A stretch of 64,000 nt of DNA, from assembly GCF_000313135.1 (NCBI RefSeq), contig NW_004457554.1, positions 635,848-699,847 on the forward strand, read 5' to 3'. Position 1 is the first letter of the stretch, and each line of letters begins with the position of its first letter. Shown here in pieces: positions 2,694 through 34,912 of this stretch. The stretch comes from Acanthamoeba castellanii str. Neff. Lineage: Eukaryota > Discosea > Longamoebia > Acanthamoebidae. Made by a program: the position numbers and the translations under genes. Under the pieces are notes generated by a model, which was given only the letters and a program-made list of their open reading frames with translations, was not told where the DNA came from and searched no databases.

Positions 2694-5600
2694 TCAGGCG
2701 TGCTGTTGCTGGTTGCTGCTCGTGGCGGCGATGAGGTTGAGCGCCGAGCCGGCCTTGAACCAGGCGATCTGGCCCGGGTTGAGCGTGTGCTGGAGAGTCA
2801 CCCCGAAGCTCTCCTCCTGTCCGCCACCGGCGGCGGCTCGTCGCGTCACCTTGGCCCGAAGCGGCTTGCCCTCCTCAATCTCGCCCACACCCTCAATCGT
2901 GATCTTGTCGCCTCCTGCAATCCCCATCCCCATGAGCCACCACGGCACACGGCACACGGCACACGGCCCACGACCCACGACCCACGACCCACGACACACA
3001 CGACCCACGACACACACGACACACGACACACGACACACGACACACGACACACGTTGGGCAGGGTACCGGTGATCTTGTCGTAGTCGGCGGGGTCGGCGAA
3101 GGTGAGCGGCAGGATTCCCTGCTTCTTGAGGTTGGTCTCATGGATGCGCGCAAAGCTCTGCAAGCGCGAAGAGCGAAGAACGAAGTGAAGGTGAGCGTCA
3201 AGCAAACGCAGGCGGCAACACAGCTGGCGGCGGCGGGGGTCGCGTGCCTGGCAGATGATGGCCTGTCCGCCGAGGTAGCGGGGCTGCAGGGCGGCGTGCT
3301 CCCTCGCGCTGCCCTCGCCGTAGTTCTTGCCCGCGACCACCACCCACGGCAAGCCCGCCTTCTGGTACTCGCGCGCCACATCTGCCGACCGGGTCGAGGT
3401 CAGTCCACCCGATGCGCGAACACAAGTCAGTCGTGCGCGACGATGATGGGTGGCGTACCGGGAACGGTGCCCTCCTTGCCGGTCAGCTGGCTGACCACGG
3501 CGTTGACCTTGCCGGTGTCGGCGTTGACGGCGCCGATCAGCGTGTTGTTGGCGATGTTCTCCAGGTGGCCCTTGTACTTGAGCCACGGCCCTGTCAATTA
3601 CCATCGACCGAGCGTGAGTCAATCTACACCCTTTCGGCGCGTCGTGTTCATCGCACATGGCACACGCGGCATACACACGGCACACACGGCACTCACGGCA
3701 CACACGGTACGTACCGGCAGCGGAGATGTGGTCGGTCGTGCACTTGCCCTGAACCTTGATCAACACCGCAGCGTCGCGAATGTCCTTCTCACCCTTCGGC
3801 CAGGGGGCAAACGGTTCCTATGAAAGAGGCGAAAACGAAATGGGCCGCGTCCAGTTAACGTTCGGAGAGCGAGAAAGAAGAACGAAGAACGAAAGCGAAG
3901 AAGAATGCGACGCGGTGTACGAGGAGTTGAAGGCGGTCGCTGGTGGGCGAGACGGCGACCTCGAGGGACGCCCGCTGGTCGGCCGGCGGCGGGGCCAGGT
4001 AAGTGTCCTGGCTACGGCCCGCATCGAATCCAGCAGCGGGAAGCGTGGCCGTTGCCTGATCGTATCCACACGACACACACACACACGACACACGGCACGC
4101 ACGGCGATCAACGCACGACCAAGAGGCAAACCGAGATGGGGAGCGGGTGGTACCGCGGCGTCGGGGCTCTCGAGTTTGTACTTGTTGCCCTGCGCGTCGG
4201 TGAGGTAGTCGGTGGTCGGGTTGAAGGTGAGGCTGCCGGCGAGCGACATGGCGGTCACCAGCTCGGGCGAGGCCAGGAAGTTGTGGGTGTTCGGGTTGCC
4301 GTCGTTGCGCGCGGAGAAGTTGCGGTTGAACGAGGTGAGGATGCTGTTCTTCTCGCCCTTGGCGTCACTGCGCTTCCACTGGCCGATGCACGGGCCGCAC
4401 GCGTTCGCCAACACCAAGCCTGGTGCGTCACGAATCATGATTTTGTTTGCTTAGAATGCAAGTCATTACGAACACACTACACGCAACGCAGCGCATTCAT
4501 GAATGTTACGTTACGTTACCTCCAATGTCACGCAGCGCCTGCATCTGGCCGTCGCGCTCGATAGTGGCTCGGATCTGTTCCGACCCTGGACAATGTGTTG
4601 AGCGTTAGCCCAAAGCGCACACACGACACACGACACATGGCACATGGCACACGACACGCACCACCGCACACGCAACAAGGGGCGTACCGGGCGTGACGGT
4701 GAAGACGCTCTGCGCCTTGGTGCCCTTCTCGCTGGCCTGACGCGCGATGGCGGCGGCGCGGGACATGTCCTCGTAGGACGAGTTGGTACAGCTCCCGATC
4801 AAGCCCGCCTGTGACCCCAACCATACGCGAATCAGCCCTGTGTGTGTGTGTGTGTGTGTGTGTGGTGACCCTTGTGTGTGTGTGTGTGTGTCGCGTGTGC
4901 TTACGGAGATTTTCTCGGGCCATTGGTTCTTCTTGACGGCAGCGGCGAACTGGGACAGCGGGGTGGCCAGATCGGGCGTGAAGGGTCCGTTGATGTAGGG
5001 CTCGAGCTCGTCGAGGTTGATCTCGATCACCTCGTCGTAGTGGCAGCCCTCGTCGGCGCGCAGGTGGCCGCGGATCTCCTTGGCCGCCGTGATGGTGTCG
5101 GCAATGTCCTTGCGACCGGTCGCGGCCAGATAGGACAGCATCGACTCCGTCAGCGGGAAGACCGACGTCGTGGCGCCCACCTCCGCACCCATGTTACAGA
5201 TCGTAGCCATTCCTACGACCGCGCGATGGCATCAGTAAAGCCGCACACGCACATGCACCACCGCACACACGTATCGCACGCGCACCACCGCACACGCACA
5301 CGCCAAGTCGCTGTGGGGTGAGAATACCAGTGCAGGACAGGGTCTCGACGCCCGGACCGAAGTACTCGATGATGCTGCCGGTGCCGCCTCGGACGGTCAG
5401 CTTGCCGGCCAGCTTGAGGATGACGTCCTTGGGCGACGCCCAGCCTCGCAACTTGCCCGTGAGCTTCACGCCCAGCACGTTCGGCGCGCGCTGTTCGACA
5501 CAAGACCCACAAAACAAACATGTTAATATATTTCTATATATTGGGAGTATAAATATAAAGAAATCAAGAAATAATAAAATAAAGTAAACACGAATGAATG

Positions 5601-26669: not shown

Positions 26670-29331
26670 TTATTTGCCGATGCAGAAGTCGCTGAAGATG
26701 ACGTCAAGGATCTCGTCGAGGTCGACGCGGCCAGTGATGCGGCCCAGCTCTGCGAGGCCACGCCGCAGCTCCTCCGCGGCCATGTCGATCGACATCCGCG
26801 CTTCTCGCGACGCGCTGGCCTCCTCCGCCATGTCCAAGTACCTATCGACCATCGGTAGCGGGTGAGCCATGATCGCACACACGCACACACGCACACACAC
26901 GCACACACAGAGAGGAGGCATTACGTGCGAAGGTGTTGGAGGGACCGCTCGAGGTGCTCCCTGTGTCGGGCACGCGTGACAACCGCGCCATCCGGCGCAG
27001 CCCCACTCTCGAAACTGCAGCGCGTTGGCAAGAGGGAGTCGGGTGAGTGAGCAAGCGCTGCGATGCTACGTTGATAAAGAAAGAAAGAAAGCGAGGGAAG
27101 TGCGTACAATGACTTGACCTGCGACTCGAGGGCCTTGGTGAGGTCCTCCAGCCCCTCGTAGTTCTTGCAGCTGATGGTGATCACACGGCGTTGCGTTCCA
27201 TCAGCCAAGCGCTGGGTAAAGGAGGAGCAATGCGGTGAGTTGTAGTGTGGCTTGCCACTCTCTCTAAGTCTACGACGTACCACGGACGCAGGTGCGGAGG
27301 TCAGCAGGTCCTTCTTGTTGAGCACGACGAGCGTGCTGGTGTCGACGAGCGACAGAAGATCGGGCTCCAACGACGGATACGTTGTCCCATCAAACAGGCA
27401 TATCTTGATGTCGGAACTTGCAAACCTAACCACGTTGATGGTGATGGTGATGACGCGATGGTGGTGGGTGGTGGGTGGTGAGTCATTACGCGCACACGTG
27501 AGCCAACGCGAGCGCGATGGTAATCCTCTCACCTTTCTCTGGCCAGTGCGACGCCTTCTTTCTCGATCTCGTCTTCCGAGTGGCGAATGCCGGCTGTGTC
27601 GGCGATGGTGAGCGGGTAGCCGGCCAGATCCAGCGACACCTGACCGTTGGACACGAAGCCGACGTTCGAATGTGACAGTCAGTTGCATATGCGCATGTCC
27701 CTCCAACCCCGTGACAGAGACTGTGTGTCGCGGGCAAGCGAACCTCGATCACATCGCGCGTGGTGCCGGGAATGGAGGACACGATCGCGGCTTTGCGTCG
27801 CGCCAGCAGGTTCAGCAGGCTGCTCTTCCCCGCGTTGGGCGGTCCTGGGGAAGCAGAGCGCAGCCAGTGCGCGGTTTAGGGTCGTTGTGTGCAGTGGTCA
27901 GGCTCACTTGGGGGGGACGCAGGTACCGACAATAGCCAGGGACGCGCCGCTTCGCATCCGCTCGCCTCTGTGCGAGTCGCTTAGGTGGAGGGCGATCATG
28001 TCGTGCAGCCGTTTGATTCGTGGTTGCACTGTGGGTGCGGGTAGTAAACAAGGTGTGCAAAGCAAGGGAAGGCCGAACGGCGCGTTTGCCATCACACCAC
28101 TAAGCGGCCAAAAGGCGCGGATGTACGATGTACCTGCAGCAGCGACTTCATGGTCGATGTGTTCATCCTCTCCAAAGTCTGCTCAGGTGGCGGTGGCGCA
28201 TGTGAGACTCACACATATGGGCGTTGGAAGACGTGGCAATGGGCGGTGTGTGTACCGATGACGGCCTCGACGTGGGCGATGCACTTGATCAGCTCCTCGC
28301 GCCACTCATTGCAAAGACGTCCCAGCGCACCCTGGGTGGGAAGGAATGAGCTCAACACGTACGTGCTGCGGTTAAGAGGGCGCATGATGTCATACCCCCA
28401 TCTGGCGCAAGGCCTGCTTCCTCTGTGCCTCGGTCTCGGCGTCGATGAGGTCGGCCAGGCCTTCGGCCTCGGTCAGATCCATCTTCCCGTTCTGGAACGC
28501 TCGCTTGGTGAACTCCTACGCGCGATACACCAACTCACTTTTGAGCGACCGCGCGTCACACACGACACACACGTCGCACACGACACACACGACACACCGA
28601 CGGTACGCACTCCGGGCTCGGCTGACCGCATGCCGGGCAGCTTGCCGAGGGCGTTGAGCACGGCCGTGATGGCAGCATGACTGCCGTGAATGTGCAGTTC
28701 GGCCATGTCCTCTCCAGTAAAGCTTCGCGGCCCTATGCACGCGCAGATCAGCATCGCACACAAACACGCACACACGCACACACGACATGCACATGCACAC
28801 GACACGACACGACACGGCACGACCAAAGACACGACCAAAGACACGGCATGACCAACGACACGACACTACACGACCAACTACACCACACCACACGGCACGC
28901 ACGACATGACGCCCACCTGGAAACCAGAGGACGAGGCCCTCGTCGAGCAGCTCGTCACGGTGATAGAGCTTGCGCAGGGAGGCCAGGCGGGGTGGTGGCA
29001 GCTCTTGCGCACGCGTCAGCTGGCGAACGGCTGCGCCGGCGCGCTCACCCGAGATGCGCACGACGGCGACGCCCGACTTGCCCGCCGGGCTGGTGCCGAG
29101 CGCGAAGATGGATTCGCCCGACTGCCCACCGTAGTGGAAGCCTCCACTGTAGCGCCGGGACCCGCGCAAAGATGGAGAGAAGATGCAGGAGTGGTCGAAA
29201 GGACACAGGGGAGAGGCCGCAGCGGCGGGGAGGAACGAGGCCGGATGTGCTGCAAGCGCGCATGGATGTGAGGAGGGGAGCAAGATTTGTCCTGTGTGCC
29301 AGTCTGAGATGTGGCCCCTTTGGCCGTGCAT
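26670..29331 (-). CDS. GTPBP3: tRNA modification GTPase MnmE (GTPBP3/MSS1)
   Basis: Acts with MnmG/MTO1 to modify U34 of mitochondrial tRNAs. The N-terminal THF-binding domain has [20 protein letters not shown], the [18 protein letters not shown] motif and [14 protein letters not shown]. The G domain holds [14 protein letters not shown] (G1, joined over an intron), PGTTRDV (G2), [13 protein letters not shown] (G3) and LNKKDLL (G4). The C-terminus is [23 protein letters not shown], keeping the family's invariant CIGK. Start: the in-frame ATG at 29331 is used; another frame offers a good Arg/Ser/Ala-rich leader from 29396 (MRAVRGRAAPSSYCASSLC), which would need an intron. The transposon end lies only 134 bp upstream of this start. 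Confidence 0.9.
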
Positions 29332-29465
29332 CTCGTAGCACAAAGAGAAGAAGCACAGTAGGAGGAAGGCGCTGCTCGGCCTCGCACAGCCCTCATCTTC
29401 TGCGTTACGAGATTGTATCAATTTTATTTTTATTTATTTGAAAAAATACAAAGTGTTTCGCAGTG

Positions 29466-29499
29466 CCCCACTGTCGGCCTGTGTTACTTGAACTAGTTT
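29466..29499 (+). repeat. Left terminal inverted repeat of the transposon
   Basis: Matches the reverse complement of 34879-34912 at 33 of 34 positions (the single difference is at 29476). Together with its left flank it forms the palindrome CAGTGCCCCACTG (29461-29473). Confidence 0.95.
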
Positions 29500-29716
29500 G
29501 GTCTTCTACGGAAGCTGCTAGACGAAAGGGGAAAGCAAAGGGGGGGGGGAAATGCCATAGGTTTCCAGACAACAGCGTTTTGGAGGGAAGAGCTTTGTGG
29601 GAGATCTTGGTAGACAAGAGAGACGGCAGTTCAAGACATGTGGTTGATACAAAAGAAAAGAGAAGAGAAATGAGGTGGAGGTGTGAGAGAGACCGTCTGA
29701 ACATGATCAGACAGAG

Positions 29717-31440
29717 CTAGACAACGCCAGCAGTAGAGGGGGAAGAGAGGAGGGCCTCAATGCCAAGCTGGCACTTGAGGTCAGTGTTGAGGAAGGGAAT
29801 TGATGCACAGCCTTCAAGGACACAGACCTGCATCCTCATAAACCACCACTCCCACACCATCCAAAGTGTGTCCATGGTGGAGGTACCACTGTAGCAGTGA
29901 GGGCAAGACAAAGGGAGAAGGAAGTACCTTGAGAAGAGCAGCTGCATGGCAACCTTTTAGGTGCCAGCCTTGCACGGGCGCCATGTTGGAGATGGTGAGG
30001 TGCACCTGTTGGCCAAACAAGACAGAGTTGAGCTTTGAGGGAAGGGAGAAAGGTGATGTGAGCAAGTGGAGGGATGAGGGATGAGGGGGTGAGGCACAGT
30101 CAGCTTACCTTGACCAAAAGGACTTGGTGGTCTGGCTGGTTCATTGTCCAGTCATGGAGCCAGTTGACCACCAGGTTGCCAATGTGGGCAAGTGCATGTA
30201 AAACGCAGAACATGACATTGTAAGGCTTGACACCTTTGACCAGGGGCTTGGTGTGAGAGGGATCTGGATAGCCTCCCAGGCCCTGTGTGGTGGCCTGTCT
30301 GTGCATGACATCAATGTGAAGTGGCCAGGAGGATTGTGAGCCAGGGAAGTGGTGCAGCCAAAAGCAGTAGATGCAGCACCATTCTGTTGAGCTTGGCCCT
30401 TGCCAGAGGAAGAACTGAAGCATTGGATTGTTGGAGCACACTTGAAGGGTGATGGGCATGGTGAAGGATGGCTTGTTGCTGGGCTGAATGGTCATGAAGC
30501 TGTTTGCCTTGGCCTTGGAGAGGTAACTGCATGCAGGCAAGTGTGGGAAGTGAGTGAGAGGCAAGTGGATGGAGGAAGGAAAAGGGGAACCTGTTGTTGG
30601 TGTGGAGGATGGCTTTGAGGTGAGGTGAGTGGGAGGTGGTGTGTGTCAAGATGCTCAGGAATTGGAAGTGTAGAGTTTTGCACAGATGCCTGAGGTTCTG
30701 ATATGTGTAGGTCTTGGTGTAGGTGGACTGGCCCCCTTGAGGGTATTCATCCATGTGATGGATGATGTCTAGACAAGTTGCATATTGGAAGTGTTGGGTG
30801 ATGAAGGGGTGGGAGAAGACGTAGTTGATGATGTTGGAAAGTGGCCAGACTGTTGTGGCATGACCATTTGACACAAATGTCCACAAACTGTGGACCTTGG
30901 TGAAGTTGTTGTGCTAGAAGGAGTGAACAGACTCCACTGATGGGAGGAGATGGGGAACTGGTGAACCTGAAGATGAGAAGAGTGAGCAGACATCAGTGAG
31001 TAGGAGTAGAAGACATACCAGTAGACAAGTGGAGAGGACGATTTTGAGGGTCATGGGGATCCTTCCCAAGGTAGAAGATGAGGCGTTTGTACTGACTGAA
31101 GGAGAGACCAACGCCCACAATGATTGCAGCTCCATGGAGAGGTTGGGTGAGGAGGTCTTGCAGGTTGGCAAGGAGCATGCAATCAAGAGACTGCTGCCAG
31201 TCTGGCACAGTCAGGCTGAGGGCAACAACTTCCTGTGGTGGGGCTTGTAGGTTGCTGAGGATGAAGGAGGCCTCCACTGGCATCCAGTGTGGATCCTTGG
31301 TTGTCCCTGATTGCAGGAAGGGCAAGAGTGTCTCCCTCTTGTGAGCAAGGGCCTTGTAGTTGTGGTCCTTGCTCTCAGGATTGTTGACGTTGTCAATGAA
31401 AAGCTCAATGAAGACCTTCCATGGTGCAACTGTGTTGGAT
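29717..31440 (-). CDS. Transposon coding block D, candidate transposase C-terminal part (unrecognised)
   Basis: Several exon-like open stretches on the - strand. Upstream to downstream they contain VFIELFIDNVNNPESKDHNY and PDWQQSLDCMLLANLQDLL (31440-31019, ending at a GTATGT donor). Next is LWTFVSNGHATTVWPLSNII (about 30913-30590), then KAKANSFMTIQPSN with WPLHIDVMHRQATTQGLGGY and MFCVLHALAHIGNLVVNWLH (about 30560-30110), then HLTISNMAPVQGWHLKGCH (about 30010) and a short tail ending in a TAG that is part of a CTAGACA motif (29717). The composition is protein-like (Trp, His, Asp conserved-looking blocks), but I could not join all pieces in frame. The D-H and H-H-x-GN blocks might be catalytic (inference). 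No family recognised. Confidence 0.45.
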
Positions 31441-32455
31441 ACTCTTCATCTCTCTCTCTCTCTCTCTCTTTTTCTCTATCTTTCTTTATGTTTACCTTTC
31501 TTTTCTTTATTCCCTCTTATTTCCTCTGACTTCACACTTGTACTGTTTCAGATCTCCTCAATACATTACCTTTTTTCCTTTCAGACATCTGGGGCTTTGA
31601 TGGACGCCAACACTATGCCCTGGCCCACGTGCTTGCTGCCTACTTCACCTTCAAGCCTGTATGTCCATGGGTGCTGTGGAGTAGGTGGTCTTTATGGCCA
31701 TCAGGATGGAGGTGCCAATGTGGCAGATGACATCTTCATCTGCCACCTTCAGCGTCAATGTTGCCTCCTCCAGGAGTTGCCTCTGCACCACCAACTTCTG
31801 GAGGAGCTCATCTCACTCACAGCACAGCTCATTGATGACAATAGAAGGGGGCTCATGCATGAGAGGTGGTGCTACTTGTGAGGGGGGGGTATAGACTGTG
31901 TAGTCTATAAGCCAATGGGCTGATAGCATTGCATGTGCAGCCACAGGTGCATGCCAGCGGTAGGGCGTGGTGCTATAGGGGTAGGGCGTGGTGTGGTGTT
32001 GCTGTGCTCCATCTGCCACTTGCTCTTCGTCTTGTTTATTTTCTTGTTGGCCTCAAACAACCACCTGTGATCTGCAGTACCACCTGCCCAGGCATTGTCT
32101 AGACAAGGAAGTGATCACCTTGTTGTCTGCAGTGAAAGTGTGTTTATTGCATAAGAGAAGAGGATCACAAGGTTCCTCATGAGGTGGTGTCCTTGCTGTT
32201 TTGCCTAGCTGTGGTACGCCCATGAGGAGGAGCTGGCTGGGCGTGAAGGCGTCTTTGCTGTGGGTTGTTGATGAGCTTGTGATCTTGTGTCATTGTGTGG
32301 TGCATGCTTTTCAGCATGACCACAAACTCCATCCCCTTCTGTTGCATTGGGGAGGGCTCACAGGAAGGCAGAGCTGGTAGGTGGAGGGAGGGATGTGGTG
32401 CTGTAGTAGGGGTGGTGTGAGAGTGGAGCTGCTGTAGATGTGGCACAGACAAGAC
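31441..32455. other. Transposon interior without a clear gene
   Basis: Contains a CT microsatellite (about 31444-31478) and T-rich stretch. It also has fragmentary - strand frames, for example LLQKLVVQRQLLEEATLTLK near 31800, broken by a TGA that sits in a GTGAGT donor-like sequence, and MQQKGMEFVVMLKSMHHTM near 32330. These may be exons linking blocks B and D, or remnants. I cannot support a model. Confidence 0.4.
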
Positions 32456-32854
32456 TTAGTCATTCCCAGACTGGAGCAGAAAAATGTCTAGATGTACCTC
32501 CAGTTGCTGCATTAGGCCAGTGTCTATCTCTTTGTGGGTGGGCACATGGCTCTGCACTTGTGCCTGGAGCCAAGGCCTGAGGCTTTCTGCCACAACACCT
32601 GCATTGGTGGGCTGGTATGCTGCCTGCCAGATGTGGCCACTGTGGTTGGTGTTGGTCCACAGGTGCCTGATGCACTGTGTGCAGACTTTGATGTTGTGTG
32701 GTGGGATGTGCAATGCACAGGTGATGCACTTGAACACTGGGCCTAGCACAGCATGGCACTTGTCACATGACTTGGTCAGGCGCTCTGGCTCCATGTTGTG
32801 CACAAGGAGCACGCCTGTGATCTGTATAGACAAATTAGCATAGTGTCTGGACAT
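32456..32854 (-). CDS. Transposon coding block B with ZZ-like zinc finger
   Basis: An exon probably begins after a CTATACAG acceptor near 32821 and runs to TGA at 32456. It encodes SCDKCHAVLGPVFKCITC, then IKVCTQC and a HSGHIW ending. The spacing (C-x2-C, ten-plus residues, C-x2-C, C-x2-C, H-x2-H) resembles ZZ zinc fingers, which bind peptides or histone tails. A Gln/Leu-rich stretch follows. An upstream exon with SSSKLIILAHVKEDEILAE (about 33005-32955) would join in phase. Role in the element is unknown: either DNA/protein binding by the transposase or an accessory protein. Confidence 0.45.
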   Translation of the reverse strand: MSRHYANLSIQITGVLLVHNMEPERLTKSCDKCHAVLGPVFKCITCALHIPPHNIKVCTQCIRHLWTNTNHSGHIWQAAYQPTNAGVVAESLRPWLQAQVQSHVPTHKEIDTGLMQQLEVHLDIFLLQSGND

Positions 32855-33026
32855 ACACTCAACAGGAACAGTTTGTGTACACTAGGCCTGGTGGCTTTGG
32901 CCTCTAGCCCCTGGTCGCTCTGAGGGGGGGAGGCTGTGTGCAACATGGCAGGATGCTGTACCTCAGCTAGGATCTCGTCTTCCTTCACATGGGCTAGAAT
33001 GATGAGCTTGCTGCTGGACCATGTGT

Positions 33027-34549
33027 TTAGTGTTCATGTACTGTTTTGTCTGCTTTGGCCTTCTTCTCTGATGGCTCTTGCATCAAGGGGTCCTTGTAGG
33101 CCGCTGCTGCCAGGGTGTTGGGGCGCTTGTGCTTCTTGTGATGGTGGTGGTGCTGCTCCTTGGCGTCTAGCTTCTGCTTCAGCTCCACCACCTCTGCCAC
33201 GAGCTTCTCATTCTTGGCTTGCTGCACATTCCATGCCACTGGTGAGTGTGTTGTGCAATTTGCAAGACATGGAATACATACCAGTCCAGACACTGCTTGG
33301 TGATGAACTGTCTGGTGGTGCTCCAGTTGCCATGCCATGATTGCCATTGCCAAGGTGGGGTTGTCTTGCACCTCCTGCCAGGTCCACTTGGTCTTCTTGT
33401 TTTTGTTGTACCATACACAACAAGCAAGATCTTGGCTGTTGTTGACACTACCTATTGTGTACTACACTTACACAAAACTCCAGGTTACATTGCACACACA
33501 AATTGTTGATGTCTGTACCTTCTTGGGTGTCTTGGAGCTCTTTCAGTCCTCTTCTTCTTCCTCTTCCACATCATCATCTTCCTCACCATTGCTGTCATTG
33601 TTGTCCCCCTCCTCCTCCTCCTCCTCCTCCTCATCACTCTCAGCCTTGTGATGCACACAGCTCAACCAAGTGCGCTTCACAATGGGCCCCTTCTCCTTTG
33701 ACATCTGCCTCCCCTTGAAGTGGTGGTGCCTGTAGTTGGTTGTGTTGATGTTCTGGTCATAGAGGTTGCACTGTGCTGCTGCCAGCACGGCATTGAAGGT
33801 CTTGATGACAGGCATGTAGATCATCTCAGCTTCCACAGGGGGGGTCGCCTGCTCCCATGACTGCAACATCACAAAGATGCCCCACTGACAAAACTGATCC
33901 ATTAAGACCCTGTCTAGGGTGTTAGTAAAGACTTTGCTTCAACTGGCTTAACAGACAGCGACAATGTATGTGTAGGTCGCTTCTGTGACATAGGAGTTGG
34001 CTTGGTGCATCATGCACTTGTGCAAGTTGAGGTCTTGGTTGAAGTAGTGCTGCTTGCAGAACCTGTGTACGTCCATGTAGTTTGTGTTGTGCTTGTCTAG
34101 CACTTGCACCATGTTGATGAGGATGTCTGCAAACATGCAGTTGGTGAGGTTAGTGTTGATGGACTGTGTCCACTCAATGCAGGCAAGCTCTTGCGGCAAG
34201 CCCTTGAGTTCAGGCTGTATGACTCCCTTCTTGAAGGTAGTTGTTGAGTGCATGATCAAGTGGTCACTTTGCTCCTGCCATATTCCCCCCCCCAATGCCC
34301 ACAACTGTGTATACACATGTTACCATTATGAGTTGCAGCTATTCAACACACAGACAACCATACCTTGAAGTGACCAATCTTGTCTAGGTGGATCCTGTGT
34401 GGTGGTGGAGCCTTGGTCTTGATGGGGGCTTGGTTGACTGCCTGGGGTGTGGCCATTGCTGCCAGGTGGCCCAGCACCTGTCTCATGTCTAGGTTGTGCT
34501 CTGCCAGGAGTTCGGTGAAGGCCTGAGGAGCAGGGGTATTGTGGTCCAT
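33027..34549 (-). CDS. Transposon coding block A (N-terminal protein with acidic tract and coiled coil)
   Basis: The start ATG at 34549 (MDHNTPAPQAFTEL) lies 58 bp downstream of a TATA box. Exon 1 (34549-34364) splices in phase 0 to 34304, giving LWALGGGIWQEQSDHLIMHS and HKCMMHQANSYVTEATYTYI. A 39-nt intron could join RVLMDQFCQWGIFVMLQSW and a Glu/Asp tract. A TGA interrupts the frame near 33543 just after the tract. A later exon has KKTKWTWQEVQDNPTLAMAI, reminiscent of a Myb/SANT-type helix, then a Lys/Glu coiled coil, a His run and a basic tail ending VHEH at 33027. The family is unknown. Whether the TGA is real or bypassed by splicing decides if the block is intact. Confidence 0.45.
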
Positions 34550-34671
34550 GGTGATGTGGAGCTGGTGGTCATTGGAGCAAGAAGAACGCATTTGGTGTGG
34601 TGGCTGTTTTATACAATCAACCAGCCCTCAAAATCTCTGCATGTACTGAGTGGGAACCTGTATGTGTCTAG
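33911..34671. repeat. Cluster of TGTCTAG motifs near the right end of the transposon
   Basis: TGTCTAG occurs at 33911, 34094, 34381, 34486 and 34665. Further copies inside the element are at 29717 (inverted), 30766 and 32096 (both the palindrome TGTCTAGACA) and 32485. Repeated short subterminal motifs are transposase-binding sites in CACTA-type elements; that role here is inference. Confidence 0.6.
34607..34613 (-). promoter_or_regulatory. TATA box of the transposon gene
   Basis: TATAAAA on the - strand, 58 bp upstream of the ATG at 34549. A start about 30 nt downstream would exclude the ATG at 34591, which supports the chosen start. Confidence 0.6.
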
Positions 34672-34878
34672 CCAATACTGCTGGCCTGCTCTTCTTGTCT
34701 ATTGTGCATTCCACGGTCTTTCTACGCCCAGACAAGGGTGTGCAAGCGCCCAGAGTTGGAGCCTTACTATGTGGTATCCTTTAATTTTTTTGACACCCGC
34801 TTCTACCATCCGTGCCGCCCGTCGGGATATTTAGGCTGTCTGCGACGTGTCTGCCACTTTTTCAGGCCGCCAAGCCCT

Positions 34879-34912
34879 AAACTAGTTCAAGTAACACAGG
34901 CAGACAGTGGGG
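34879..34912 (-). repeat. Right terminal inverted repeat of the transposon
   Basis: Partner of 29466-29499. Its CTAG at 34882-34885 provides, on the - strand, a TAG stop for the neighbouring NADAR gene reading in from the right. Confidence 0.95.

What the first reader, a model, noticed from the sequence alone, without database searches (positions are those of the whole stretch)
29466..34912. Complete TIR transposon of unrecognised family
Seen: 34-bp inverted repeats (33/34 identical) bound 5.45 kb that differs in base composition from both flanks. Known: CACTA elements end in CACTA/CACTG and carry subterminal repeats. Inference: a CACTA-related or new superfamily. No transposase motif I know fits blocks A, B or D, and no 3-bp target duplication is present; CCC and GGG flank CACTG...CAGTG as part of the TIR.
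Basis: partly seen in the sequence, partly recalled or inferred. Interest (0 to 1): 0.82.

Follow-up and report, generated by a model that had tools for sequence, protein, structure and literature searches.

The report
Hypermutated amoeba transposon, new CACTA-like lineage
A jumping gene in the soil amoeba Acanthamoeba has matching ends, a cut-and-paste enzyme that carries the motif pattern of the CACTA/RAG1 group but resembles no catalogued family, and has been silenced by an almost complete and partly one-strand loss of its CG sites.

Summary
29466-34912 is a mobile DNA element with 34-bp inverted ends (33/34). Three TIR-bounded copies occur in the genome, plus a diverged lineage with shorter related ends, CCCYACTGTC. 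The host is Acanthamoeba castellanii Neff. Of four independent insertions, three show no target duplication and one a 2-bp TT match.

The unfamiliar coding blocks are explained by decay. Copies differ almost only by CpG to TpG/CpA changes: W vs C124 shows 306 transitions to 10 transversions, and 0.49% divergence at other sites. In one copy (C234), 48 consecutive scored CpGs were lost on the same strand (shuffle P<=5e-5).

Relatives and copies together show D, D, C(2)C, LH, H(4)H and a provisional E, spaced much as in RAG1: the signature of the CACTA/EnSpm-Mirage-Chapaev-Transib group. No profile library or PDB search finds a transposase, structure models failed, and ends and duplication do not fit a named family. 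I read it as a dead copy of an undescribed CACTA/RAG1-like lineage. The strand-coordinated CpG hypermutation may be the more surprising part.

The parts
29466..29499 (+). left terminal inverted repeat
34879..34912 (-). right terminal inverted repeat, 33/34 complementary to the left
29466..34912 (.). whole element, 5447 bp, coding strand mainly minus; CpG observed/expected 0.15
34343..34627 (-). ORF block (N-terminal gene), kept in C124 and C234 copies
33948..34319 (-). ORF block (N-terminal gene), similar to C248 at the protein level
33543..33938 (-). ORF block ending in an acidic stretch
33027..33461 (-). ORF block, His/Lys-rich, possibly coiled-coil (inspection only)
32456..32881 (-). ORF block with Cys/His pairs, zinc-finger-like; weak DUF3716 match E=0.0029, below the curated cut-off
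31587..31657 (+). piece of the region upstream of the transposase core, inverted relative to the C124 copy
31432..31590 (.). truncated copia LTR (159 of about 206 bp) inside the element
31231..31433 (-). piece of a second ORF (238 aa in C124) that runs opposite to the transposase in C124 and C248; inverted here
30311..30913 (-). transposase block holding the first catalytic Asp (motif at 30737-30754)
30100..30645 (-). transposase block: second Asp motif (30418-30432, Asn-Asn in this copy), C(2)C (30364-30375), conserved LH (30196-30210)
29946..29966 (-). H(4)H motif of the transposase
29894..29897 (-). junction where 361 bp present in C124, including the provisional catalytic Glu block, is missing here

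Best explanation
The window holds a dead copy of a cut-and-paste DNA transposon of Acanthamoeba castellanii Neff. In the living element a set of two or more genes, a zinc-finger-like accessory protein and a DDE transposase with a C(2)C/H(4)H zinc module, would bind the 34-bp ends, cut the element out and join it to a target, leaving no or almost no target duplication. After insertion the copies were methylated at CpG and their CpGs turned into TpG or CpA, on one strand over a long tract in at least one copy, while internal deletions and an inversion finished the decay. Shown: ends, copies, near absence of duplication, CpG-restricted decay, strand tracts, motif order and spacing. Inferred: the transposition chemistry, identity of the catalytic Glu, function of the accessory genes, methylation of these particular copies.
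For: Three TIR-bounded copies and a diverged lineage with ends CCCTACTGTCTGTGTGT at C248 and C50. The catalytic region matches database proteins found by profile (seven at E<=10) and the relative L040. D1 to D2 is 85 residues in all 5 proteins that cover both (P0001-P0005); first D of the DD pair to C(2)C is 19, and an LH follows, in all 7 that cover them (P0001-P0007); H(4)H in P0002, W, C124 and C234. H to E is 20 in C124 across a GT..AG interval and about 18 in L040 (my count on the outputs). RAG1 has 19 and 20. Kojima 2025 (passages) gives C(2)C and H(3-4)H between second D and last E as shared by the whole clade. Transitions to transversions 306:10, 310:14, 331:17. CpG methylation of transposons in this species is published (passages).
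Against: No Pfam, NCBIfam, PHROGs or PDB match to any transposase (HMMER's filters drop most matches above E about 0.1). AlphaFold models failed (mean pLDDT 36 and 43), so no fold test. The last Glu is provisional: the region differs by a two-residue shift between C124 and L040. Which D of the DD pair is catalytic is unknown, so the spacing to C(2)C is 19 or 18; the pair reads NN in W and ND in C124 and C234, and the first Asp reads Asn in the relative P0004. No empty site was found, so the insertion rule rests on flanks alone. In print, DNA transposons as a class are not enriched for methylation in this species, though some inserts are highly methylated.
Confidence: 0.75

Rival explanations
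1. It is an ordinary CACTA/EnSpm (or Plavaka) element whose 2-3-bp duplications have been erased by mutation.
For: Motif order fits the clade; internal CACTG..CAGTG resembles CACTA ends; C124 shows a 2-bp TT match.
Against: Non-CpG divergence between copies is only about 0.5%, too little to erase duplications at W and C234; the ends start CCC, and the C248 lineage has TACTG, not CACTG; no Pfam transposase of this group matches even the undecayed relatives.
Confidence: 0.12
2. The CpG loss is ordinary slow deamination of 5-methylcytosine in old copies, not an active or processive process.
For: Only CpG is hit and there is no preference for the base 5' of the C (0.39-0.43 for all four); CpG methylation is known in the host; the strand test is not significant for the C124 copy (P 0.07) and small polarised subsets of W and C124 show no tracts.
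Against: CpG cytosines changed about 250-410 times faster than other sites, and C234 has 48 consecutive scored sites lost on the same strand over 1.15 kb. Independent deamination of both strands does not give such tracts.
Confidence: 0.4
3. The element moves by another enzyme (for example a tyrosine recombinase or a virus-like integrase) and the D-D-C(2)C-H(4)H pattern is coincidence.
For: No statistical similarity to any DDE family; almost no target duplication.
Against: TIRs plus a motif set with nearly the same spacings as RAG1, kept in relatives about 40-60% identical.
Confidence: 0.1

Closest known systems
CACTA/EnSpm-Mirage-Chapaev-Transib (CMCT) clade and RAG1
   Same: D, D, C(2)C, H(3-4)H, E order; D2 to C 19 (or 18) residues and H to E about 20 as in RAG1; TIR DNA transposon
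   Different: ends CCCYACTGTC rather than CA..TG; no 2-5-bp duplication at three of four sites; no detectable sequence similarity
Plavaka (A: TGT..ACA, 2 bp; B: CATCA..TGATG, 2-3 bp)
   Same: same motif clade; TIRs
   Different: termini, duplication, no Pfam match at E<=10
Spy/PHIS elements (recalled: no target duplication)
   Same: insert without duplication
   Different: recalled termini and transposase differ; no similarity found by Pfam
Fungal repeat-induced point mutation (RIP; recalled)
   Same: near-complete C to T decay of repeats with strand tracts
   Different: here strictly CpG, in an amoebozoan; some repeats escape; no enzyme identified

Membership tests
[quoted passage not shown]
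   both Cys invariant in all 8 rows of A6; 19 residues after the first D of DD
[quoted passage not shown]
   H(4)H in window, C124, C234 and P0002; LH His invariant in all 8 rows of A6. That the third His is the LH is my reading of a figure legend (2C and 3H)
[quoted passage not shown]
   first Asp in 3 of 4 database relatives that cover it (Asn in P0004), DD pair in 6 of 6 (P0002-P0007); Glu position provisional; structure models failed
[quoted passage not shown]
   none at W, C234 and C248/C50; C124 has 2 bp TT
[quoted passage not shown]
   CCCCACTG (3 copies) and CCCTACTG (C248/C50)
[quoted passage not shown]
   no Pfam transposase at E<=10; no RAG1 or Transib chain in PDB by profile. Repbase was not available
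KDZ (Kyakuja/Dileera/Zisupton) | 7-8-bp target duplication | tested here: not met
   definition from passages
RIP-like hypermutation | C to T decay of repeats far above background | tested here: met
   element middle CpG o/e 0.10-0.13; ten adjoining 200-bp bins have 0.70-1.33 except one at 0.21
RIP-like hypermutation | all sizeable repeats are hit | tested here: not met
   C15 copia copy keeps o/e 0.92; the left flank shared by C248 and C50 keeps 0.99 and 0.97
RIP-like hypermutation | strand-coordinated tracts within a copy | tested here: met
   C234 clear (P<=5e-5), window copy (P 0.007) and C124 copia (P 0.007) moderate, C124 copy not significant (P 0.07)
RIP-like hypermutation | a dedicated enzyme, premeiotic timing | not testable with these tools
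   no genetic experiment

The most novel reading that the evidence does not exclude
Acanthamoeba has an active, strand-processive CpG hypermutation system that destroys transposons soon after insertion, an amoebozoan counterpart of fungal RIP that works on methylated CpG; its victims include an undescribed DDE transposon superfamily that inserts without target duplication.
Probability: 0.35. Interest if true: 0.86.

Novelty: new variant of a known kind. Interest (0 to 1): 0.66.

Why it matters
A CACTA/RAG1-type transposase that inserts without duplication would add a branch to the clade from which vertebrate antibody-gene recombination came. Strand-coordinated CpG decay in an amoebozoan would suggest that genome defence by targeted mutation is not confined to fungi, and would offer a link between the known CpG methylation of transposons and giant-virus inserts in Acanthamoeba and their permanent inactivation. 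It also warns that transposon searches in such genomes can fail because the coding blocks have lost CpG-containing codons, catalytic ones among them.

Tried and rejected
Pfam scans of window ORFs, copies and relatives gave only chance-level matches (host MnmE-type matches apart). NCBIfam and PHROGs likewise. Rfam found nothing. Viral contigs: 6 pattern matches, none confirmed; phage records: none. PDB: only unrelated weak hits. Two AlphaFold jobs were poor, so I ran no fold search. Joined flanks found no empty site (only best candidates are scored there). C50 shares the left flank of C248 and the first 20 bp and the later part of its right flank, with about 700 bp present only in C248, so I count them as one insertion. 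A simple duplication-driven rule is not supported everywhere: their shared left flank is not CpG-depleted (o/e 0.99 and 0.97), the right-flank pieces have 0.32 and 0.79, and the C15 copia copy keeps 0.92 although it is repeated. The two C248/C50 element copies differ by 24 substitutions in 774 aligned bases of which only 4 are CpG-type; their CpGs were already gone (o/e 0.06 and 0.04), so this pair does not show the CpG pattern. A first runs test on pairwise mixed sites of the transposon was dropped as selection-biased in favour of sites whose CpG ancestry is shown by the two other copies; only the copia row that is polarised by the C15 copy is kept. Against processivity: C124 alone is not significant, and the four small polarised subsets of W and C124 show no tracts, while the two of C234 do. 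A reading of the window copy as carrying a simple solo LTR was rejected, since 423 bp of the C124 copy is missing there and the flanking pieces are inverted.

Full report
WHAT IS THERE. The 34-nt arms at 29466-29499 and 34879-34912 are 97% complementary. A genome-wide pattern search with up to 3 mismatches found 6 matches, all in three inverted pairs, against 0 for the reversed-pattern control. The pairs bound the window copy (W, 5447 bp), C124:327137-333934 (6798 bp) and C234:71328-76595 (5268 bp), which share blocks 89-97% identical. Diverged copies carry related ends: CCCTACTGTCTGTGTGT bounds 3546 bp on C248 and 1205 bp on C50 (4 matches, control 0). One-ended relatives lie on C109 and C79. 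C248 and C50 share the left host flank with 10 differences and 46 gap columns over 997 aligned bases, so I count them as one insertion.

HOST. A profilin gene in the same genome is identical over 125 residues to PDB 1f2k/2acg PROFILIN II, which I recall as the Acanthamoeba protein. A protein found later, P0007, is named ACA1_057560 of Acanthamoeba castellanii str. Neff and lies on a contig of 2,036,344 b, the length of C124 here.

INSERTION SITES. Flanking k-mers of 1-12 bases match at none of W, C234 and C248/C50; C124 matches for 2 bases, TT. No empty site was found with the joined flanks. CCC..GGG belongs to the ends in W, C124 and C234.

WHY THE PROTEINS LOOK STRANGE. W differs from C124 by 306 transitions and 10 transversions, from C234 by 310 and 14, and C124 from C234 by 331 and 17; three-way singletons sit almost all in CG, TG or CA. 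Removing CpG-derived sites leaves 20 differences in 4112 sites (0.49%), 21 in 4033 and 26 in 4183. From the mixed TG/CA sites I infer 319-339 ancestral CpGs of which 10-16% survive per copy, a rate per cytosine about 335-413 times that of other sites (this assumes the two strands decay independently, which the tracts below partly violate). CpG observed/expected is 0.10-0.13 in the middle of the three elements but 0.44-0.45 in the first 150 bp and 0.79, 0.73 and 0.39 in the last 200 bp. Outside the element, 14 of 16 4-kb bins have 0.92-1.19; of ten 200-bp bins beside the ends nine have 0.70-1.33 and one 0.21. A copia element gives an independent case: the C15 copy has 0.92, the C124 copy 0.26, with 157 CG in C15 changed to TG or CA in C124, 33 kept, and 10 other differences in 2251 sites; the rate ratio per cytosine is about 254. 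The 5' neighbour of the deaminated C makes no difference. One pair does not follow the pattern: the C248 and C50 elements differ by 24 substitutions of which 4 are CpG-type, their CpGs being already gone.

STRAND TRACTS. At sites where the other two copies prove CpG ancestry, C234 has 36 strand runs where 71 are expected and one run of 48 scored sites over 3159-4313 of its own element coordinates (145 sites, 20,000 shuffles, P<=5e-5). W has 44 against 56 (139 sites, P 0.007), C124 57 against 66 (131 sites, P 0.07). The copia copy has 63 against 78 (157 sites, 5000 shuffles, P 0.007). So the tracts are strong in one copy, moderate in two and not significant in one. Independent deamination would not produce the C234 pattern; enzymatic action on exposed single strands, as in fungal RIP (recalled), would. 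CpG methylation enriched on repeats in A. castellanii is published, with LINE and LTR elements preferred and DNA transposons as a class not enriched but some inserts highly methylated (PMC12344493, passages); highly methylated mobile elements and viral regions are described in PMC12210455 (passages). A library search for Acanthamoeba with repeat-induced point mutation gave 2 papers that, from titles and abstracts in the listing, are about other subjects; an earlier four-term search gave 0.

THE TRANSPOSASE. The best-preserved relative (L040, C124:165500-175499) has 682 codons with one stop. With it the protein search found P0002, then P0003, and with a three-row profile seven proteins in all at E<=10 of 7997 scored candidates, one of them with a locus name. 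The first Asp and the DD pair are 85 residues apart in the 5 proteins that cover both (P0001-P0005; the first three read from gapped alignment rows without gaps in between); the first D of the pair is 19 before a C(2)C pair, and an LH follows, in the 7 that cover them (P0001-P0007). The first Asp is Asn in P0004. In the 8-row alignment of the second block the two Cys and the LH His are invariant; the DD pair reads NN in W and ND in C124 and C234. An H(4)H motif follows in P0002 and in W, C124 and C234; a Glu lies 20 residues after it in C124 (across a GT..AG interval) and about 18 in L040, so the Glu is provisional (my count). RAG1 has D600, D708, E962, C727/C730 and H937/H942 (PMC4914335, passages), that is 19 and 20. 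[quoted passage not shown] Our element meets the motif tests and fails the ends and duplication tests. No profile library, PDB sequence search or structure prediction gave support. Hence 'works like a CACTA/RAG1 transposase' is likely, and 'is a CACTA element' is not claimed.

OTHER PARTS. A zinc-finger-like block (32456-32881) and acidic and basic blocks lie upstream on the minus strand. In L040 the corresponding blocks lie on the strand opposite to the transposase, so they probably form a separate gene. A 238-aa ORF of unknown function runs against the transposase in C124, with a counterpart in C248, and a 76-residue piece of it survives, inverted, in W. Each of the three copies lacks different segments: W the Glu region, C124 the first-Asp region, C234 the second ORF. 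No copy seen here is intact.

VERDICT. The finding is real and better than ordinary: an undescribed lineage of cut-and-paste transposon beside the CACTA/RAG1 clade, in a protist, in a state of extreme CpG-restricted decay. Undescribed here means not found by the searches named above; Repbase was not at hand. The strand tracts make a RIP-like process in Amoebozoa a testable proposal, which I put at about one in three.

Noticed in passing
C15:2975-7179 (L041) and C124:171126-175204 (L040): Two copies of one copia element, one CpG-intact (o/e 0.92) and one decayed (0.26), give a natural polarised test of CpG decay.
   Followed up: yes
C124 contig, L040:815-2860 (-) and 3365-4742 (+): In this relative the transposase and the zinc-finger-like gene are on opposite strands, unlike in the window copy; the database protein ACA1_057560 lacks the H(4)H stretch, as if it had been spliced out of the model.
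   Followed up: partly
window 26921-29433 (-): A MnmE/TrmE-like gene (MnmE_helical below cut-off, TrmE_N above it) lies beside the transposon; the insertion is at its 5' side.
   Followed up: no
window 29466-29615 and 34713-34912: CpGs near both ends of the element survive more often than interior ones in all three copies, as if the ends were protected.
   Followed up: partly
C248:6973-7173: The right flank of the C248 copy contains another repeat; parts of it match 16 other places in the genome.
   Followed up: no
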